DNA of 32,815 nucleotides from Hyphomicrobiaceae bacterium (lineage in GTDB: Bacteria > Pseudomonadota > Alphaproteobacteria > Rhizobiales > Xanthobacteraceae). The notes under the pieces are model-generated. The model had not been told where the DNA came from. It did no database searches and saw only the letters and a program-made list of their open reading frames with translations. How positions within the stretch are numbered: the first letter of the stretch is position 1; the number at the start of each line of letters is the position of its first letter. A program made the position numbers and the translations under genes. The DNA is taken from assembly GCA_021324465.1 (NCBI GenBank), contig JAJPJB010000090.1, forward strand, positions 1-32,815, written 5' to 3'. This document shows, in pieces, positions 2 through 14,185 of the stretch.

Positions 2-3000
2 GGCGATTCGATGGTCGCGCAGCTCTCCGAGCGGGGCGGCGATCTGCTCGATCGGCTGGAAGCGACGAGCGAGGAGACCTCGCGCGCGATTGCGGCGGCG
101 AGCGACCGCCTCACCTCCAACCTGAACTTCAAGACCAATCATATCGGCGAGGAGTTTTCGGAAATCGCCGACGGCCTGGAAGCCATGATGACGCAGCGCC
201 TCGACCGCGTCACCGAAAGCTTCTCGGAAAAATCGCTGGCCGTGGTCGATCTGATGATCGGCCGCTCACAGGAGCTGACCGACACCATCATCGAGACATC
301 GAGCCAATTGGCCGAGACCATCGCCACCCGTGCCGACGAGGCCAATGCTACGCTGAAGGCTTCCGCCGAATCTTTCATCATTGATCTCGATCTGCGCGGC
401 AGCGAAATCGCCAGCAAGCTCAAACAAGCGGGCGATGGCATCGCCGAACAGCTGGTCGCGCGCACCGCCACTTCGACCGAGGCCATGCGCGAAACCGCCG
501 AACACGTGGCGGGCGTGATCGCCACGCGCAGCGACGCGGTGCGCGAACTGTTGGCGACGCGGCTCGCCGCCTTCGAGGAAATGTTCAGTCACACCGGCGC
601 CGAGCTGGGCGAAAAGATCTCGCGCGATTCTTCCACGCTGGGCAACCTCATCACTCGGCATCTCGCCGAATTCGACCGCACCGTGAAGACCTACGGCGCC
701 GAGCTCGTCGAGCGGCTTGGCGCGCGCACGCAGGACGTCTCCGAGTCGATGCGCAGCTATGTCGACACTTTCGACAATCGCGTCACCGCCAAGGCCAACG
801 AGGTCACGACCGCGCTCGACCAGCGCCTTACCCGCTTCCAGGAGGCGATCGACAACCGCTCGCAGAGCCTGACCGACGCGCTGTCCGCCCGCATCGTCGA
901 GATTTCCAAGACGCTTGCCGAGAACGGCAAGGAGGTGGTCGCCGCGCTCGACAAGCGCGTCGGCGAAGTCACCAGCGTGATCGATACCCGCTCGGCCAAG
1001 CTCGCCGAAACCATCGGCGAGCGCATAGCGGCGATCGATTCGGCGCTCGGCAAAGGCGCGCTCGACGTCGCCAACACGCTCGATTCGCGCGTCGGTCATC
1101 TCGAGCAGCTGTTGGGCGGCCGCGCCGAGCAGATCGTGCATCAGATGGAGGTGCGCAGCCGTGCCGCCGCCGATCTGTTGGCCTCCCGCTTCGAGCAATT
1201 ATCGGAATCGATCAGGACCCATTCGACCGGCGCCGAACGGGCGCTGACCCAGCTCGCCGTCAACACCACCGAGGCGCTGAGCAAGAGCGCCGCCGCGAGC
1301 ACCGCGGCGACCGAAGCGCTCAATCGCAGCGCCGCCGAGGCGACCGTCTCGCTCAACCGCAGCACCGGCACGCTGACCAATGCGATCAGCAAGAGCGCAG
1401 GCCTTGCTACCGAGGCGATCGGCAAGGCGACCGCCGGAGCCAGCGATCTCCTCGCCAAGAGCGCGCAGAGCGCGGCCGAGGCGATCGGACGCAGCGCCAC
1501 CGAGGCCGAGCGCAAGCTCACCGGCATGAGCGGGGAGGTGTCGCGCAGCATCGTCGGCAAGTCCAACGAGATCAACACCGCCCTGTCGCAGCGCGTCGAA
1601 GACATGTCGCGCATCCTCGATGAAAAGTCGAACAGCCTGATCTCGGCGTTGAACAGCAAGGCGCAGGGTTTCGCCGGCGAGATCGGCCGCGTCACCGATC
1701 AGACCGTCAAGGCGATCGAGGCCAAGGGCTTCGTGTTCACCCAGACCATGATGGACAAGAGCGAGGAGATCGCCCGGCTGATCAACGATGCCAGCCTCAA
1801 CGCGACCGCTGCGGTCACCCGCACGCTCGGCCAGATGCAGGAAGGCGCGCAGGGCGTCACCGAGGCCGCCAAGCTGACCATCACACGCACGCTCGAAGAC
1901 CTGCACAAGGCGACGAGGACCGCAATCGAAGAATCGAAGCAGACGGCGGCGGCCACGGTGGCCGACATGCTGGAGACGCACACCATGCTGCGCTCCGACT
2001 CGACCGCTTTGTTCGAGCGGCTGCGCGAGGCCAATATTTTGCTGCAGGAAGTTCTGTCGGGCGCGCAGGAGAATATGAGCTCGATCGAGCACACCATGGC
2101 GGCGCGCATTTCCGAATTCGTCGCCGCGATGAACGATCTCTCGACCAAGAGCGGCGCCACCACCGCCAAGGTCGAGCAGCATCTCGGCATCTTCAACAAT
2201 GTCACGTCGAAGGTGCTGAGCGATCTCGGCGATCTCGCCGACCAGTTCACCTCGCACGGCCGCACCCTGAGCGAGGCGGTGGAAATGCTGGAAGCGAGCA
2301 ATCGCCGCACCGAAGAGACGCTCACCAGCCGCCACGCCAGCATCGAGACGCTGGTGACGACGCTCGACGCGCGGACCGAAGATTTCGGCCAGCGCCTGCA
2401 GCGCTTCTCGGCGCTGCTCGAACAGTCGCTCGATACCGCGACCACCCGCGCGCGCGAGATCGCCGGCGTGATAGCCGAGACCAGCAACGAAAGCCTGCAA
2501 AATCTCGAGCAGCAATACGATCTCGTGCGCAAGAATTCTGAGCTCGAACGTGCGCGCACCAGCGACGCCTTAAAGACGGTGTACGAGGAAGTCGCCGCCG
2601 AAACCCACGACATGTTCAATCGGTCCGCCGCCCGCTTCACCGAGGTCATGCAGGGGATGAAGCAGATGGCGGCGGAAATGCAGGAGGAGCTCGAAGCGAC
2701 GCGGGCCCAGTTGCGCCGCGGCATTCTCGAACTGCCGCAGGAGACCGCCGAAAGCGCGGCGCAGATGCGGCGCGTCATCGTCGACCAGATCGAGGCTCTG
2801 GCCGAGCTCAATCGTATCGTCGCCCGCCACGGCCGCTCGCTCGATACGGCCGAGCCGGTGCGGCGCGAAGCCGAACCGCTTTATGCGTCGGGTGGCGGAC
2901 GCGGTCAGCCGCGGCCCATCCGGCCCGACATGCGCGCCGACATGCGCGCCGACATGGGGCCGCCGCCGGCGCCCCCGGCCCCGCCGCGCGACATTACCGG

Positions 3001-3505
3001 CGCGCCGACGCGGCGGCCCGGTCCGCCGAACTTAAGCCCGGTGCAAGGTGGCAAGGACGAAGGCAATGGCCGCAACGGCGGTTGGCTGTCCGATCTGCTC
3101 ACCCGTGCCTCGCGCGACGAGGCGCCGTCGGTTGCGCCTTCGCGGGAGCCCGTGCCGCGCGAGCCCGTCGATTCCATCGATTCCCTGTCGGTCGACATCG
3201 CGCGCATGATCGACCATGACGCGGCGGCGGAATTGTGGGACCGCTACAAGCGCGGCGAGCGCGGCGCGTTCAATCGCCGCCTCTATACGCCGCAGGGCCA
3301 AAAGGCCTTCGACGAGATCCGCGCCAAATATCGCGCCGATCCGGAATTCCGCCAGACCGTGGAGCATTACATCCACGAATTCGAGCGGCTCCTCGACGAC
3401 GTGTCGCGCGGCGACCGCGGCCCCGCCGTTGCCCGCAATTATCTCACCTCCGATACCGGCAAGGTCTACACCATGCTGGCACACGCGGCGGGACGGTTCG
3501 ATTAG
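2..3505 (+). CDS. Giant coiled-coil (apolipoprotein/kinesin-like) protein, 5' truncated by window edge
   Basis: The frame is open from the first bases with no stop upstream of the first ATG (position 11), so the true start probably lies outside the window. At least 1164 residues are visible. About residues 1-960 are low-complexity helical sequence rich in Ala, Ser, Thr, Glu and Arg, with degenerate repeats such as TRSxxLxETI and SKSAxxATEAI, as expected of long coiled coils. A Pro/Gly/Arg-rich linker follows (about 965-1020; it includes a tandem RADM repeat at nucleotides 2929-2955). A compact C-terminal domain of about 110 residues contains LWDRYKRGE, YTPQGQKAFDEI and LTSDTGKVYTMLAHAAGRF. 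Proteins of this build are widespread in Hyphomicrobiales and usually annotated only by their resemblance to apolipoprotein or kinesin-like repeats. A structural or envelope-associated scaffold role is inference. An N-terminal membrane anchor could exist but is not visible. Confidence 0.85.
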   Translation, partial: GDSMVAQLSERGGDLLDRLEATSEETSRAIAAASDRLTSNLNFKTNHIGEEFSEIADGLEAMMTQRLDRVTESFSEKSLAVVDLMIGRSQELTDTIIETSSQLAETIATRADEANATLKASAESFIIDLDLRGSEIASKLKQAGDGIAEQLVARTATSTEAMRETAEHVAGVIATRSDAVRELLATRLAAFEEMFSHTGAELGEKISRDSSTLGNLITRHLAEFDRTVKTYGAELVERLGARTQDVSESMRSYVDTFDNRVTAKANEVTTALDQRLTRFQEAIDNRSQSLTDALSARIVEISKTLAENGKEVVAALDKRVGEVTSVIDTRSAKLAETIGERIAAIDSALGKGALDVANTLDSRVGHLEQLLGGRAEQIVHQMEVRSRAAADLLASRFEQLSESIRTHSTGAERALTQLAVNTTEALSKSAAASTAATEALNRSAAEATVSLNRSTGTLTNAISKSAGLATEAIGKATAGASDLLAKSAQSAAEAIGRSATEAERKLTGMSGEVSRSIVGKSNEINTALSQRVEDMSRILDEKSNSLISALNSKAQGFAGEIGRVTDQTVKAIEAKGFVFTQTMMDKSEEIARLINDASLNATAAVTRTLGQMQEGAQGVTEAAKLTITRTLEDLHKATRTAIEESKQTAAATVADMLETHTMLRSDSTALFERLREANILLQEVLSGAQENMSSIEHTMAARISEFVAAMNDLSTKSGATTAKVEQHLGIFNNVTSKVLSDLGDLADQFTSHGRTLSEAVEMLEASNRRTEETLTSRHASIETLVTTLDARTEDFGQRLQRFSALLEQSLDTATTRAREIAGVIAETSNESLQNLEQQYDLVRKNSELERARTSDALKTVYEEVAAETHDMFNRSAARFTEVMQGMKQMAAEMQEELEATRAQLRRGILELPQETAESAAQMRRVIVDQIEALAELNRIVARHGRSLDTAEPVRREAEPLYASGGGRGQPRPIRPDMRADMRADMGPPPAPPAPPRDITGAPTRRPGPPNLSPVQGGKDEGNGRNGGWLSDLLTRASRDEAPSVAPSREPVPREPVDSIDSLSVDIARMIDHDAAAELWDRYKRGERGAFNRRLYTPQGQKAFDEIRAKYRADPEFRQTVEHYIHEFERLLDDVSRGDRGPAVARNYLTSDTGKVYTMLAHAAGRFD

Positions 3506-7592: not shown

Positions 7593-8417
7593 TTAAGCTG
7601 CCATCCCGGTCTGCGCGCCGACCGCCACCGCCTCCTCCTCGTCCGGCAGCGGCGGCAGCATGCCGACATGATCGGTCCAGCGGATGATCTCGAAGCGGCC
7701 GTCCGGATGCTCGGCAAGCGCGGTGCAGCTTTCGACCCAGTCGCCGCAGTTCATGTAGCGAATCCCGAAATTGTCGTGGATCACGGCATGATGGATGTGG
7801 CCGCAGATCACCCCGTCGGCCTGGTGGCGCTGCGCCTCCTCGGCCAGCGTCTGCTCGAACGCGCCGATATAGTTCACCGCGTTCTTGACTTTGTGCTTGG
7901 CCCATTGCGACAGCGACCAGTAGCGGAAGCCGAGCCTGCGGCGGATCGCGTTGAAGTAGCGGTTGACGAAGATCGCGAAATCGTAGGCGGTGTCGCCGAG
8001 CAGCGCGAGCCAGCGTGCATGCTTGACCACCATGTCGAAGACGTCGCCATGGACCACGAGATAGCGCCGCCCGTCGGCGGCCTGATGGATCGCAGTCTCC
8101 ATGACCTCGATGCCGCCGAAATGCGTGCCGTAATAGTCGCGCAGAAACTCGTCGTGATTGCCCGGCAGATAGATCATTCGCGCGCCTTTGCGCGCCTTGC
8201 GCAGCAGTTTCTGCACGACGTCGTTGTGCTCCTGCGGCCAGTACCAGCCCGAGCGCAACTGCCAGCCGTCGACGATGTCGCCGACCAGATAGATCGTCTC
8301 GGCGTCATGATAACGTAGAAAGCCGATGAGCTGATCGGCCTGGCAGCCGCGCGCGCCGAGATGCACATCGGAGATAAAGAGAGTACGGAACTTTTTTGTA
8401 CCGTGCTCGAATGTCAC
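7593..8417 (-). CDS. plcP: UDP-2,3-diacylglucosamine diphosphatase-family metallophosphoesterase, probable PlcP-type phospholipase C
   Basis: 274 residues, GTG start at 8417. All calcineurin-type metal-binding blocks are present: DVHLG (D17, H19), GDIVDGW (D47), GNHDE (N87, H88), VVHGD (H123) and GHIHH (H207, H209). Annotation pipelines usually label this family UDP-2,3-diacylglucosamine hydrolase (LpxH-like). The FRTLFISDVHLG start, WYWPQEHNDVVQKLLRKARKGA and the NCGDWVESCTALAEHPDGRFEI tail match what I remember of Sinorhizobium meliloti PlcP. That enzyme is a PhoB-controlled phospholipase C that removes head groups from phosphatidylcholine to give diacylglycerol when phosphate is scarce. 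A Pho-box-like site with a matching -10 lies 39-72 bp upstream, and a lipid glycosyltransferase is divergent. Both support PlcP over a housekeeping lipid A role. No signal peptide or membrane span is visible, so it would act at the cytoplasmic face. Confidence 0.85.
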   Translation of the reverse strand: MTFEHGTKKFRTLFISDVHLGARGCQADQLIGFLRYHDAETIYLVGDIVDGWQLRSGWYWPQEHNDVVQKLLRKARKGARMIYLPGNHDEFLRDYYGTHFGGIEVMETAIHQAADGRRYLVVHGDVFDMVVKHARWLALLGDTAYDFAIFVNRYFNAIRRRLGFRYWSLSQWAKHKVKNAVNYIGAFEQTLAEEAQRHQADGVICGHIHHAVIHDNFGIRYMNCGDWVESCTALAEHPDGRFEIIRWTDHVGMLPPLPDEEEAVAVGAQTGMAA

Positions 8418-8455
8418 CGAATCAATGCTCGCATCACTGGCGGTTTTCGAGTCTG

Positions 8456-8489
8456 CTTTTAGATGCGCTGCATTGCAGAACCATGACAG
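8456..8489 (-). promoter_or_regulatory. Pho-box-like promoter of the PlcP-like gene
   Basis: Read on the minus strand, CTGTCAT-GGTT-CTGCAAT (8489 to 8472) is two 7-base half-sites 11 bp apart, with 7/7 and 5/7 matches to the CTGTCAT half-site of PhoB boxes. Exactly 10 bp later comes TAAAAG (8461 to 8456), placed where the -10 of a PhoB-activated promoter, which lacks a -35, should be. A start near 8449 would leave a leader of about 32 nt before the GTG at 8417. The match is by eye. Confidence 0.65.
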
Positions 8490-8537
8490 ACGGCGAAGGC
8501 AATGGTTAACGGCGCGGACAAAGCGCGCTGCGCGCGC

Positions 8538-8571
8538 GAGTCACAACTCTGTCATGGCGCATGCCTAAAAG
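8538..8571 (+). promoter_or_regulatory. Pho-box-like promoter of the glycosyltransferase gene
   Basis: GAGTCAC-AACT-CTGTCAT (8538-8555) is a 7-4-7 direct repeat, with 5/7 and 7/7 matches to CTGTCAT. It is followed after exactly 10 bp by TAAAAG (8566-8571). Spacing and -10 are identical to the opposing promoter of the PlcP-like gene. The strong half-sites of the two boxes form a perfect 9-bp inverted repeat, CCATGACAG (8481-8489) and CTGTCATGG (8549-8557). Transcription would begin near 8578, almost at the ATG. Confidence 0.65.
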
Positions 8572-8579
8572 TTCCCGCG

Positions 8580-9803
8580 ATGACAGTGACGATTCTCGCG
8601 GCAGCGACGTTCACCATCGCCGTCAGCCTCATCCATGTTGCGAGCATTGCGGCGGCGATCGGCCGGTTTCGCCGCAAGCCTGACCGCGAATCGCCGCCCT
8701 ATCCGCCCGTCACTTTGGTGCGCCCGCTGTGCGGCATCGACAACTACGCCGTCGACACGCTGCGCACGACATTCGAGCTCGATCACCCGCAATATGAGAT
8801 TCTGTTCTGCGTCGCCTCGGCAAGGGATCCGGTCATCCCGCTGGTGCGCGATTTGATCGCCGAATATGGCGGCGCCAATGCCAAAATCCTGATCGGCGAC
8901 GATCGCGTCAGCGCCAACCCCAAGCTCAATAATGTGATCAAAGGCTGGCGCGCCGCCGCGCACGACTGGATCATCATCGCCGACTCCAATGTGCTGATGC
9001 CGCGCGACTATGTTGCGCGCCTGTTCGCGAGCTGGCGCGCCGACACCGGACTTGTCGCCTCGCCGCCGATCGGCTCGCATCCGCATGGCTTTTGGGCCGA
9101 GCTCGAATGCGCGTTTCTCAATACCTATCAGGCGCGCTGGCAATATCTCATCGACACGCTGGGCGGCGGTTTTGCCCAAGGCAAAACCATGCTGTGGCGG
9201 CGCGCCGACCTGGAAAGCGCCGGCGGCATCGCGGCTTTGGCCAAGGAGGCCGCCGAAGATGCGGCTTCAACCAAGATCGTGCGCGGCATGGGCCGCAAGG
9301 TGCGCTTGATCGATCGCCCGCTCGCCCAGCCGCTTGGCTACCGTACCGCGTCCGAAGTCTGGAATCGGCAATTGCGCTGGGCGCGGCTGCGGCGCGCCAG
9401 CTTCTTTTTCTATTTTCTGCTCGAGATTTTTTCCGGCGGCGTGCTGCCGATGCTGACGATTGCGTTTCTGGCGCACGCTCTGGCGTGGCCGGTTGCGCTC
9501 AGCGCGCTCGCCTTCGGTGCATTCTGGTACGGCGGCGAAATGTTTCTAGCCGCCGCGGCCGGCTGGCATACGCGGCTCTGCTCCCCGCTCTACGGCCTGT
9601 GCCGCGATCTCCTGCTGCCGGTGCTGTTCGTCGCGGCGCTCAAAGGCAACGACTTTGTCTGGCGCGGCAATGCAATGCAGGTCGAGCGCATGGACGCGCA
9701 GCGCCGCCGCGTGCTGGCGCGCGTCCGCCCGCGCGTGCAAAAAGTCGCGAGCGACGGCCGGCGCCGCCTGCGCTCGCTGCGCGAGCGGCTGTCGGAGCGG
9801 TGA
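8580..9803 (+). CDS. GT21-type lipid glycosyltransferase (ceramide glucosyltransferase-like)
   Basis: 407 residues from the ATG at 8580. Upstream in-frame starts (from 8502) would lie before or inside the Pho box. An N-terminal membrane helix (about 4-28) is followed by a GT-A domain with GIDNYAVDTL, the metal-binding region IIIADSNV (D135), GGGFAQGKTMLWRRADL, the catalytic-type Asp in AAEDAAS (D227) and the (R/Q)xxRW motif RQLRW (263-267). At least two hydrophobic segments follow (about 274-330), and the tail is very basic. This is the ceramide glucosyltransferase (GT21) architecture. Members in Agrobacterium and Mesorhizobium transfer glucose, galactose or glucuronate to ceramide or diacylglycerol. 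It would act at the inner membrane. Being divergent from the PlcP-like gene with a shared type of promoter, diacylglycerol is an attractive acceptor, but this is inference. Confidence 0.85.
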   Translation: MTVTILAAATFTIAVSLIHVASIAAAIGRFRRKPDRESPPYPPVTLVRPLCGIDNYAVDTLRTTFELDHPQYEILFCVASARDPVIPLVRDLIAEYGGANAKILIGDDRVSANPKLNNVIKGWRAAAHDWIIIADSNVLMPRDYVARLFASWRADTGLVASPPIGSHPHGFWAELECAFLNTYQARWQYLIDTLGGGFAQGKTMLWRRADLESAGGIAALAKEAAEDAASTKIVRGMGRKVRLIDRPLAQPLGYRTASEVWNRQLRWARLRRASFFFYFLLEIFSGGVLPMLTIAFLAHALAWPVALSALAFGAFWYGGEMFLAAAAGWHTRLCSPLYGLCRDLLLPVLFVAALKGNDFVWRGNAMQVERMDAQRRRVLARVRPRVQKVASDGRRRLRSLRERLSER

Positions 9804-13174: not shown

Positions 13175-14185
13175 ATGCCCTTTGCCGGCGGAGATGGGCT
13201 CGAAAAGCTCGAAGACATGATCGTGCGGACGGCGGAATCGACCGCGGATCATGTGCGCGCCGCAAAGGCGGCCATCGGCACCGTCATATTCGGCCAGGAC
13301 AGGGTGGTCGAACAGGCGCTGGTCACGATCCTGTCGGGCGGTCATGCGCTCCTGCTCGGCGTGCCGGGTCTCGCCAAGACCAAGCTCGTCGAAACCATGG
13401 GCATGGTGCTCGGGCTCGACGCGCGGCGCATCCAATTCACGCCCGACCTCATGCCCTCCGACATTCTCGGCACCGAGGTGCTGGAGGAAAGCCAGACCGG
13501 CAAGCGCAGCTTCCGCTTCATCTCGGGTCCGGTCTTCGCGCAGCTCCTGATGGCAGACGAGATCAACCGCGCCTCGCCGCGCACCCAGTCGGCGCTGCTG
13601 CAGGCCATGCAGGAGCAGCATGTCACCGTGGCCGGGACGCGTTACGACTTGCCGCGTCCGTTCCACGTGCTGGCGACGCAAAACCCGCTGGAGCAGGAAG
13701 GCACCTATCCGCTGCCGGAAGCGCAGCTCGACCGTTTCCTGATGGAGATCGACGTCACCTATCCCGATCGCGACGCCGAACGGAAAATTCTGTTCGAGAC
13801 GACCGGCTCCGAAGAGACGCGGCCCAAGCCGGCAATGACGGCGGACGATCTTGTCGCCGCGCAGCGGCTGGTGCGGCGGCTTCCGGTCGGCGAATCGGTC
13901 GTCGAAGCCATTCTCGCGCTGGTGCGCTCGGCGCGCCCGGGACAGGATAGTGGCGATGCCGCAAAACTCATTGCCTGGGGACCGAGCCCGCGCGCGAGCC
14001 AGGCGCTGATGCTGGCCGTGCGTGCTCGCGCCCTGCTGGAAGGGCGACTCGCGCCCTCTATCGATGACGTGGTCGATCTCGCCGAACCGGTGCTCAAGCA
14101 CCGCATGGCGCTGACTTTCAGCGCCCGCGCCGAGGGCGAAACCATCGAAGGGGTGATTGCGCGTTTGAAGGCCCGGATTGGATAG
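13175..14185 (+). CDS. MoxR-family AAA ATPase
   Basis: 336 residues. An AAA+ ATPase of the MoxR group, thought to act as a chaperone that activates or assembles partner complexes through VWA-domain proteins. The Walker A region is GVPGLAKTK (about 66-74; A replaces one G, normal for MoxR). Walker B and its neighbourhood are LLMADEINRASPRTQSALLQAM, the sensor region is VLATQNPLEQEGTYPLPEAQLDRF, and the C-terminal lid contains WGPSPRASQALMLAVRARALLEGR. It is the first gene of a plus-strand operon with DUF58, BatA/DUF4159 and membrane VWA genes, the usual partners. Its TAG shares a base with the GTG preceding the DUF58 ATG. Confidence 0.93.
   Translation: MPFAGGDGLEKLEDMIVRTAESTADHVRAAKAAIGTVIFGQDRVVEQALVTILSGGHALLLGVPGLAKTKLVETMGMVLGLDARRIQFTPDLMPSDILGTEVLEESQTGKRSFRFISGPVFAQLLMADEINRASPRTQSALLQAMQEQHVTVAGTRYDLPRPFHVLATQNPLEQEGTYPLPEAQLDRFLMEIDVTYPDRDAERKILFETTGSEETRPKPAMTADDLVAAQRLVRRLPVGESVVEAILALVRSARPGQDSGDAAKLIAWGPSPRASQALMLAVRARALLEGRLAPSIDDVVDLAEPVLKHRMALTFSARAEGETIEGVIARLKARIG

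What the first reader, a model, noticed from the sequence alone, without database searches (positions are those of the whole stretch)
8456..8571. Mirrored Pho-box promoters between a PlcP-like phosphoesterase and a GT21-type lipid glycosyltransferase
Seen: on each strand of this gap there is a 7-4-7 direct repeat (CTGTCAT-GGTT-CTGCAAT on minus, GAGTCAC-AACT-CTGTCAT on plus). Each is followed after exactly 10 bp by TAAAAG. The two strong half-sites form a perfect 9-bp inverted repeat. Known: PhoB binds pairs of CTGTCAT-like heptamers about 10 bp before the -10. In S. meliloti, PlcP is a PhoB-controlled phospholipase C, and plcP lies beside a lipid glycosyltransferase gene (agt) in several marine bacteria. 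Inference: one phosphate-starvation switch turns on phospholipid breakdown and glycolipid synthesis together.
Basis: partly seen in the sequence, partly recalled or inferred. Interest (0 to 1): 0.8.

Follow-up and report, generated by a model that had tools for sequence, protein, structure and literature searches.

The report
Divergent phosphate-starvation promoters for lipid swap
A short stretch between two back-to-back genes, one that probably breaks down phosphorus-containing membrane lipids and one that probably builds phosphorus-free sugar lipids, carries a conserved phosphate-starvation switch site for each gene, and related bacteria often add a DNA-methylation sequence to the same kind of promoter.

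Summary
In detail: each strand of 8456-8571 has a 7-4-7 heptamer pair, exactly 10 bp, then TAAAAG. A matrix made from pstS-upstream boxes of the same genus ranks the two sites 1st and 2nd of 65,596 window positions if the linker is ignored, 2nd and 4th if scored. In 28 unique divergent plcP/GT21 gaps the GT-side box core is exact in 24 and within one mismatch in 28; TA follows exactly 10 bp later in 24. The genome encodes PhoB. Corrections: two separate operators at variable spacing; the exact inverted repeat recurs in 2 of 28 gaps; the GT is a Pgt-like GT21, not Agt (a homologue lies elsewhere) or HpnI; its ATG lies where transcription should start, so its mRNA is probably near-leaderless. 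Unexpected: plcP promoters of other families carry a GANTC (CcrM) site 13 bp after the distal Pho core (71 of 110; pstS 0 of 38). The window's gap lacks that spacing, but GA[GT]TC sits inside the GT box in 8 of 8 genus gaps. A methylation input is possible, untested.

The parts
7593..8417 (-). plcP-like metallophosphoesterase (probable intracellular phospholipase C); likely GTG start at 8417
   Evidence: PF00149 46.5 bits; LpxH models far below cut-off; one match in the genome; homologues in 129 of 149 family genomes
8580..9803 (+). GT21-family lipid glycosyltransferase (Pgt-like); ATG at 8580, not the mechanical ORF start 8502
   Evidence: PF13506 189 bits; Met1 invariant in the 9 sequences aligned; HpnI model 199 bits against cut-off 310
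8472..8489 (-). Pho box of plcP: CTGTCAT-GGTT-CTGCAAT
   Evidence: rank 1 of 65,596 with linker ignored; conserved
8456..8461 (-). -10 element of plcP (TAAAAG), 10 bp from the box
   Evidence: TA at this place in 8 of 8 genus gaps, more variable in the other 20
8538..8555 (+). Pho box of the GT21 gene: GAGTCAC-AACT-CTGTCAT
   Evidence: rank 2 of 65,596 with linker ignored; core within 1 mismatch in 28 of 28 gaps
8566..8571 (+). -10 element of the GT21 gene (TAAAAG), 10 bp from the box and 8 nt before the ATG
   Evidence: TA at exactly +10 in 24 of 28 gaps, 0-2 at the other offsets from +4 to +19
8538..8542 (.). GANTC (CcrM-type) sequence inside the distal half-site of the GT21 Pho box
   Evidence: GA[GT]TC in 8 of 8 genus gaps, 0 of 20 other gaps
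8449..8453 (.). second GANTC, at the expected plcP transcription start; a third lies at 8419-8423
8505..8510 (.). GTTAAC element 15 bp upstream of the plcP Pho box, function unknown
   Evidence: [AG]TTAAC 5 bp (6 gaps) or 15 bp (2 gaps) upstream of the plcP box in 8 genus gaps, one of them (L122) placed by eye; exact GTTAAC somewhere in 7 of 8; 1 GTTAAC in the whole window

Best explanation
The gap is a bidirectional regulatory region with two separate PhoB-activated sigma-70 promoters. When phosphate is short, phosphorylated PhoB binds each heptamer pair in place of a -35 element and recruits RNA polymerase to the -10 ten bp downstream. One transcript makes PlcP, which would remove head groups from phospholipids and leave diacylglycerol; the other makes a Pgt-like GT21 enzyme, which would add sugars to diacylglycerol to give phosphorus-free glycolipids. 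The GT21 transcript probably begins at or within a few bases of its ATG. Shown here: sites, geometry, conservation, gene families, presence of PhoB. Inferred: PhoB binding, induction, enzyme activities, leaderless start.
For: A matrix from pstS regions, not from this gap, ranks the sites 1 and 2 in the window with the linker ignored. pstS boxes of the genus include a type with proximal half CTGAAAT, like CTGCAAT here. 28 unique divergent gaps: GT core exact in 24, within 1 mismatch in 28; mononucleotide-shuffled gaps have an exact one in 0.07%; TA at +10 in 24. 23 of the 42 family genomes with this GT21 have it divergent from an adjacent plcP, in 10 of 19 genera (hand tally). GT21 genes away from plcP also carry a box: of 89 unique upstream regions 53 have one, and 45 of these 53 have an ATG 22-25 nt after it. 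In S. meliloti 16 of 33 predicted PhoB boxes with mapped starts lie 22-25 nt before the start (PMC3616915, passages). PhoB 347.5 bits against cut-off 296.2. Published: PhoB-activated PlcP synthesis in S. meliloti, predicted Pho box before pgt in A. tumefaciens (PMC3972451, passages).
Against: No transcript, binding or lipid data for this organism, known only as an assembly of 107 contigs. The distal GT half-site GAGTCAC is a poor PhoB half-site. 36 of 89 GT21 upstream regions show no box by the rule used. With the linker scored the two sites rank 2 and 4. The pstS dyads used for training were picked because they resembled the consensus: 12 of 19 stretches scanned, of which two (L082, L083) were cut off by a contig end and did not lie upstream of the gene.
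Confidence: 0.9

Rival explanations
1. One shared operator: PhoB bound across both boxes forms a single cooperative unit, so the two promoters fire as one switch.
For: Conserved head-to-head arrangement. In the window the two strong half-sites form a 10-bp inverted repeat, and 14 of 28 gaps have some perfect inverted repeat of 7-12 bp containing TGAC, the longest 12 bp in L098.
Against: The other 14 of 28 gaps have no such repeat of 7 bp or more, and the window's 9-mer recurs in 2 of 28; a 7-bp repeat is what two like half-sites give by themselves. Distance between the boxes varies (48 bp here, about 5 bp in L092, over 100 bp in L127; read). Single boxes before GT21 genes away from plcP keep the same geometry.
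Confidence: 0.1
2. The promoters join PhoB with a cell-cycle or methylation signal: GANTC sites methylated by CcrM and read by GcrA (or shielded by MucR) tune the lipid switch.
For: GTCAY-N13-GANTC in 71 of 110 plcP promoters of other families and 43 of 118 in the window's family; pstS regions 0 of 38. 25 of 35 other families have it, other spacings tried 0-2 loci. In the window's genus GA[GT]TC is fixed in the GT distal half-site, also in two gaps where GATTC breaks the Pho G (8 of 8). GcrA is encoded 169 bp from phoB. In Caulobacter, GANTC between -10 and -35 marks a group of cell-cycle-timed promoters (PMC4287350, passages), and PhoB raises methylation of a MucR-shielded GANTC promoter under starvation (PMC5172544, passages).
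Against: In that same Caulobacter case the promoter with its GANTCs mutated was still induced by starvation (PMC5172544). The window's plcP box lacks the N13 site. 31 of 75 promoters of the family without the exact site have a one-off variant in the slot (about 4 expected from control offsets), and 8 of 39 in other families (about 1.5 expected), so a looser element may be the real unit. The middle base is biased (A 57, C 9, G 5, T 0 outside the family), which methylation alone does not require. The pstS control is partial: by the lenient score only 10 of its 21 order-level regions reach 13. CcrM itself was not searched for.
Confidence: 0.27
3. The GT21 enzyme serves hopanoid or sphingolipid glycosylation, not glycerolipid remodelling.
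For: Its only NCBIfam matches are HpnI and HpnB, both below cut-off; Pgt also accepts ceramide, though it favours diacylglycerol (PMC3972451, passages).
Against: HpnI score 199 against cut-off 310, while two other proteins of the same genome pass it (457 and 416 bits). Neighbourhood with plcP and its own Pho box.
Confidence: 0.12
4. The heptamers are chance matches in a GC-rich gap.
For: 222 genome sites within 3 mismatches, so single weak matches are common.
Against: Conservation with fixed geometry in 28 gaps and top matrix ranks.
Confidence: 0.01

Closest known systems
PhoB-regulated plcP of Sinorhizobium meliloti
   Same: Metallophosphoesterase-type intracellular phospholipase C under PhoB (PMC3972451, passages)
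   Different: Here plcP is divergent from a GT21 gene that has its own Pho box; the S. meliloti sequence itself was not compared
plcP-agt operons of marine bacteria and type II methanotrophs
   Same: plcP beside a lipid glycosyltransferase gene; Pho boxes predicted in plcP clusters of marine bacteria (PMC4796936, passages and section 13; PMC9239053, passages)
   Different: agt is GT4 and lies downstream of plcP; here a GT21 in divergent orientation, while an agt homologue (56% identity to the Methylosinus Agt-like protein) lies on another contig. Types 3 and 5 of PMC4796936 have plcP upstream of other glycosyltransferases, one confirmed in Devers 2011
Pgt, processive glycosyltransferase of Mesorhizobium loti and Agrobacterium
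   Same: GT21 family (PMC8231724, passages); predicted Pho box before pgt (PMC3972451, passages)
   Different: No characterised Pgt sequence was compared; a divergent plcP neighbour was not described in the passages seen
Caulobacter promoter P169 (elpS)
   Same: PhoB-responsive promoter with GANTC sites (PMC5172544, passages)
   Different: Different gene; sites shielded by MucR and not needed for the phosphate response there; no fixed Pho box-GANTC spacing described in the passages seen

Membership tests
PhoB-dependent promoter (Pho box) | Two direct heptamers related to CTGTCAT with 11-bp period | tested here: met
PhoB-dependent promoter (Pho box) | Box replaces the -35, about 10 bp before the -10 | tested here: met
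   10 bp on both strands; TA at +10 in 24 of 28 GT promoters
PhoB-dependent promoter (Pho box) | PhoB encoded in the genome | tested here: met
   347.5 bits against cut-off 296.2
PhoB-dependent promoter (Pho box) | PhoB binding and induction by phosphate starvation | not testable with these tools
   needs footprinting and expression data
PlcP | Calcineurin-type metallophosphoesterase, not LpxH | tested here: met
   PF00149 above cut-off; LpxH models 51 and 48 bits against 134 and 190
PlcP | Orthologous to plcP of genomes with a plcP-agt neighbourhood | tested here: met
   One match at E <= 1e-20 in each of 6 named genomes, 63-67% identity; an Agt-like frame follows it in L198, L199 and L203. 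Those frames were recognised by eye from their sequence; no family search was run on them
PlcP | Phospholipase C activity on phospholipids | not testable with these tools
   biochemistry needed
Pgt-type GT21 | GT21 domain with conserved Asp and RxxRW residues (motif recalled) | tested here: met
   PF13506 189 bits; D135, D227, R263, R266, W267 invariant in 9 sequences
Pgt-type GT21 | Closest to a characterised Pgt | tested here: inconclusive
   51% to a Rhizobium cremeum homologue, itself below the HpnI cut-off; no characterised Pgt sequence was compared
HpnI | Score above the curated cut-off of TIGR03472 | tested here: not met
   199 against 310 bits
CcrM/GcrA-type promoter | GANTC between -10 and -35 | tested here: not met
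   Not met in the window (sites at 8419, 8449 and 8538); met in plcP promoters of 62 of 104 loci, 25 of 35 other families
CcrM/GcrA-type promoter | GcrA encoded | tested here: met
   196 bits against cut-off 26.9, 169 bp from phoB
CcrM/GcrA-type promoter | CcrM encoded | not tested
   no search for CcrM was made in this genome
CcrM/GcrA-type promoter | Site methylated; transcription depends on methylation | not testable with these tools
   needs methylome and mutants

The most novel reading that the evidence does not exclude
In Hyphomicrobiales the phosphate-starvation lipid switch is often a two-input promoter: PhoB plus a CcrM-methylated GANTC locked 13 bp after the distal Pho core, so that phospholipid breakdown (and glycolipid synthesis) is licensed by cell-cycle or replication state as well as by phosphate. 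In the window's genus the methylation site has moved into the distal Pho half-site of the glycosyltransferase promoter, where methylation state could directly compete with, or gate, PhoB binding.
Probability: 0.27. Interest if true: 0.82.

Novelty: new variant of a known kind. Interest (0 to 1): 0.62.

Why it matters
It gives a sequence-level case that breakdown of phospholipid and synthesis of replacement glycolipid are co-wired by divergent Pho-box promoters in 10 genera of one bacterial family (hand tally), with a probable near-leaderless glycosyltransferase mRNA. The spacing-locked GANTC in plcP promoters of 25 of 35 other families of the order makes a new question directly testable: does DNA methylation or the cell cycle gate membrane remodelling under phosphate starvation?

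Tried and rejected
The inverted repeat as a functional palindrome: not favoured; the window's 9-mer recurs in 2 of 28 gaps, though 14 of 28 have some repeat of 7-12 bp. GT21 as a replacement for a lost agt: rejected, an agt homologue is present elsewhere. GT21 as HpnI: rejected. Ranking sites genome-wide by mismatches to the consensus: not informative by itself; of the 25 two-mismatch sites one is this plcP box and one is the pstS box, and the other 23 were not annotated. CtrA full sites (TTAA-N7-TTAA) for the GTTAAC element: none noticed by eye, no formal scan. GANTC density in the gaps was not decisive alone, because control pentamers GTNAC and CANTG were also enriched; the fixed-spacing test was used instead. 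In that test control pentamers at the same spacing gave 0-3 of 118 and 0-1 of 110. Box detection for plcP allowed a degenerate proximal half after seeing the data; the spacing test avoids that by using only GTCAY and GANTC.

Full report
What is in the sequence. On the minus strand the order is CTGTCAT-GGTT-CTGCAAT (8489-8472), ten bases, TAAAAG (8461-8456); on the plus strand GAGTCAC-AACT-CTGTCAT (8538-8555), ten bases, TAAAAG (8566-8571). The plcP-like gene most likely starts at GTG 8417 (minus). The glycosyltransferase starts at ATG 8580; the longer mechanical ORF from 8502 runs through the promoter, and Met1 at 8580 is invariant in the nine sequences aligned.

More than chance. The window is the whole contig C91 of a 4.57-Mb genome in 107 contigs. 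Counting mismatches to CTGTCATN4CTGTCAT gives 222 genome sites within three mismatches against 65 for the pattern read backwards. A better test used boxes upstream of pstS in the same genus. Of 24 pstS matches in 13 genomes I scanned stretches at 19; two of these (L082, L083) were cut by a contig end and did not lie upstream of the gene. Twelve showed a clear dyad and were used, of two types, CTGTCAT-N4-CTGTCAT and CTGTCAT-N4-CTGAAAT. They were picked for resembling the consensus, but without use of this gap. The matrix ranks the two gap sites first and second of 65,596 positions when the linker is ignored and when half-sites are pooled; with the linker scored they rank second and fourth. The CTGAAAT type suggests that a proximal half like CTGCAAT is normal for Pho boxes here.

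Conservation. Of 149 genomes sampled from the family, 129 have a plcP match and 42 have this GT21. Comparing positions by hand, 23 of the 42 have the two genes divergent and adjacent, in 10 of 19 genera; 4 have them in one direction, 1 convergent, and 14 apart or on other contigs. The nearest named relatives are labelled Xanthobacteraceae, so I call the family that (the best 80 of 520 confirmed stretches were kept). Of those 80 named loci 22 are divergent, 1 is GT then plcP, and 57 show no plcP in the DNA held. Pooling and removing duplicates left 28 unique divergent gaps, window included. The GT-side core (GTCAY twice, 11 bp apart) is exact in 24 of 28 and within one mismatch in 28; mononucleotide-shuffled gaps have an exact one in 0.07%. 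TA follows at exactly +10 in 24 of 28, and at the other offsets from +4 to +19 in 0 to 2. The plcP-side box is exact in 23, one off in 4, two off in 1, if the proximal half may be GCAAY, a choice made after seeing the data.

Two operators rather than one. The distance between the boxes varies from about 5 bp (L092) through 48 bp (window) to over 100 bp (L127) (read). The window's inverted repeat is 10 bp; its 9-mer form is in 2 of 28 gaps. In fairness, 14 of 28 gaps have some perfect inverted repeat of 7 to 12 bp built on the half-sites, and 14 have none. GT21 genes away from plcP keep the same single box: of 89 unique GT21 upstream regions 53 have a box with at most one core mismatch, and 45 of those 53 have an ATG 22 to 25 nt after it. 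In S. meliloti, 16 of 33 predicted PhoB boxes with mapped starts lie 22 to 25 nt before the start (PMC3616915, passages). The GT21 ATG is therefore where transcription should begin, and a leaderless or nearly leaderless mRNA is the inference. The 36 regions without a box by this rule include methanotrophs, Roseiarcus and Rhizobiaceae; nine such loci have a box with GANTC about 260 to 360 nt upstream of the estimated start.

The proteins. P0001 is a calcineurin-type phosphoesterase, far below the LpxH cut-offs, with one match in its own genome and one match in each of six named genomes at 63-67% identity. In three of these (Methylocapsa, Methylosinus, Hyphomicrobium) an Agt-like frame follows (recognised by eye), as reported for type II methanotrophs (PMC9239053, passages). 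P0002 is a GT21. It scores 199 bits on HpnI against a cut-off of 310, while two other proteins of the same genome pass it. Pgt enzymes are GT21 and Agt is GT4 (PMC8231724, passages). The same genome also has an Agt homologue on another contig (56% identity to the Methylosinus frame), with a degenerate candidate box upstream, CCGTCACACGATTGAGAT, whose lenient score of 13.8 equals that of many accepted plcP boxes. So the genome resembles Agrobacterium in having both kinds (PMC3972451, passages). No characterised Pgt sequence was compared, so 'Pgt' is a likely label, not a test.

Regulator. PhoB is encoded at C16:83166-83843, above its cut-off, about 3.7 kb downstream of the pstS match, and GcrA lies 169 bp further on, convergent, at C16:84013-84489.

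An unexpected element. Looking at plcP promoters in general, I noticed GANTC, the CcrM methylation sequence, at a constant place after the Pho box. Of 127 promoters collected (115 loci and 12 of the 28 gaps, some overlapping), 108 had a usable box, and 46 of these had GANTC at offset +2; other offsets from -30 to +40 had at most 4, and five control pentamers had none at +2. A test free of box calling asked only for GTCAY and GANTC: at spacing N13 there are 43 of 118 unique promoters of the family and 71 of 110 from other families, with at most 7 and 2 at any other spacing tested; control pentamers at the same spacing gave 0-3 and 0-1; pstS regions have 0 of 38, one of them having it one base further. 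The pstS control is partial, since only 10 of its 21 order-level regions reach the lenient box score of 13. Four of the 71 lie far from the gene; restricted to 230 nt and to loci with a family code, it is 62 of 104 loci in 25 of 35 families (in at least half of the loci in 19), while the other spacings tried give 0 to 2 loci. In 80 named GT21 loci (457 kb, both strands) the N13 pattern occurs 24 times: by my reading of the positions 15 upstream of the GT21 gene, 4 upstream of plcP and 5 elsewhere; other spacings gave 2 to 14. In 53 GT21 promoters with a box, GANTC lies in the spacer at offset 0-3 in 12, control pentamers in 0-1.

What this means for the window. The window's gap does not contain the N13 pattern; the only copy in the window is at 14068 on the minus strand, away from the gap. 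It has GANTC at 8419, 8449 and 8538. The last lies inside the distal half-site of the GT box, and GA[GT]TC is fixed there in 8 of 8 genus gaps and in none of the 20 other gaps; in two of the eight it reads GATTC, which keeps GANTC but breaks the Pho consensus. In Caulobacter, GANTC between -10 and -35 marks a group of cell-cycle-timed promoters (PMC4287350, passages), and PhoB raises methylation of a MucR-shielded promoter (PMC5172544, passages). Against the methylation reading: in that Caulobacter case the promoter with mutated GANTCs was still induced by phosphate starvation; the middle base is biased (A 57, C 9, G 5, T 0 outside the family; C 26, G 9, A 7, T 1 inside); and 31 of 75 promoters of the family without the exact site, and 8 of 39 of other families, have a one-off variant in the slot, where control offsets predict about 4 and 1.5. 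A looser promoter element that often happens to be GANTC is not excluded. CcrM was not searched for in this genome.

Literature. In the held library no paper contains both plcP and GANTC, one contains plcP and GT21, and one contains GANTC, CcrM and PhoB; further searches were made, of which I saw the listings. The divergent plcP/GT21 arrangement was not described in the passages I saw; PMC4796936 (section 13) describes plcP upstream of glycosyltransferases in one direction, one of them confirmed by Devers 2011. Most subscription papers are not held; Yuan 2006 was looked up and not held.

Verdict. It is a new arrangement of known parts. The GANTC element is the part a specialist would find surprising, and it can be tested directly.

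Noticed in passing
L345-L424, L318-L342, L198-L203 and the family's plcP loci: GTCAY-N13-GANTC spacing locked in plcP promoters across Hyphomicrobiales (71 of 110 outside the family, 43 of 118 inside), against 0 of 38 pstS regions.
   Followed up: yes
window 8505-8510: [AG]TTAAC lies 5 or 15 bp (about one helical turn apart) upstream of the plcP Pho box in the 8 genus gaps; one GTTAAC in the whole window. Could be an UP-like element or another regulator's site.
   Followed up: partly
G000:C16:83166-84489: phoB and gcrA are convergent neighbours, 169 bp apart, in this genome.
   Followed up: no
L155, L158, L159, L173, L174, L179, L189, L190, L194, positions about 2030-2220: In these loci, mostly with methanotroph names, a Pho-box-like site with GANTC at N13 sits about 260-360 nt upstream of the estimated GT21 start, perhaps before a small upstream gene.
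   Followed up: no
L064-L075, L077: pstS regions of the genus show two Pho box types, with CTGTCAT or CTGAAAT as the proximal half; several genomes have more than one pstS match.
   Followed up: partly
L145, L165, L168, L169, L170, L182, L184: A shared degenerate dyad CCTTCATAGAAGCGTCG[CT] upstream of GT21, in Methylocapsa, Roseiarcus and unnamed relatives.
   Followed up: no
window 11-3505: 1164-residue repetitive protein matching apolipoprotein-type repeats (PF01442, 118 bits).
   Followed up: no
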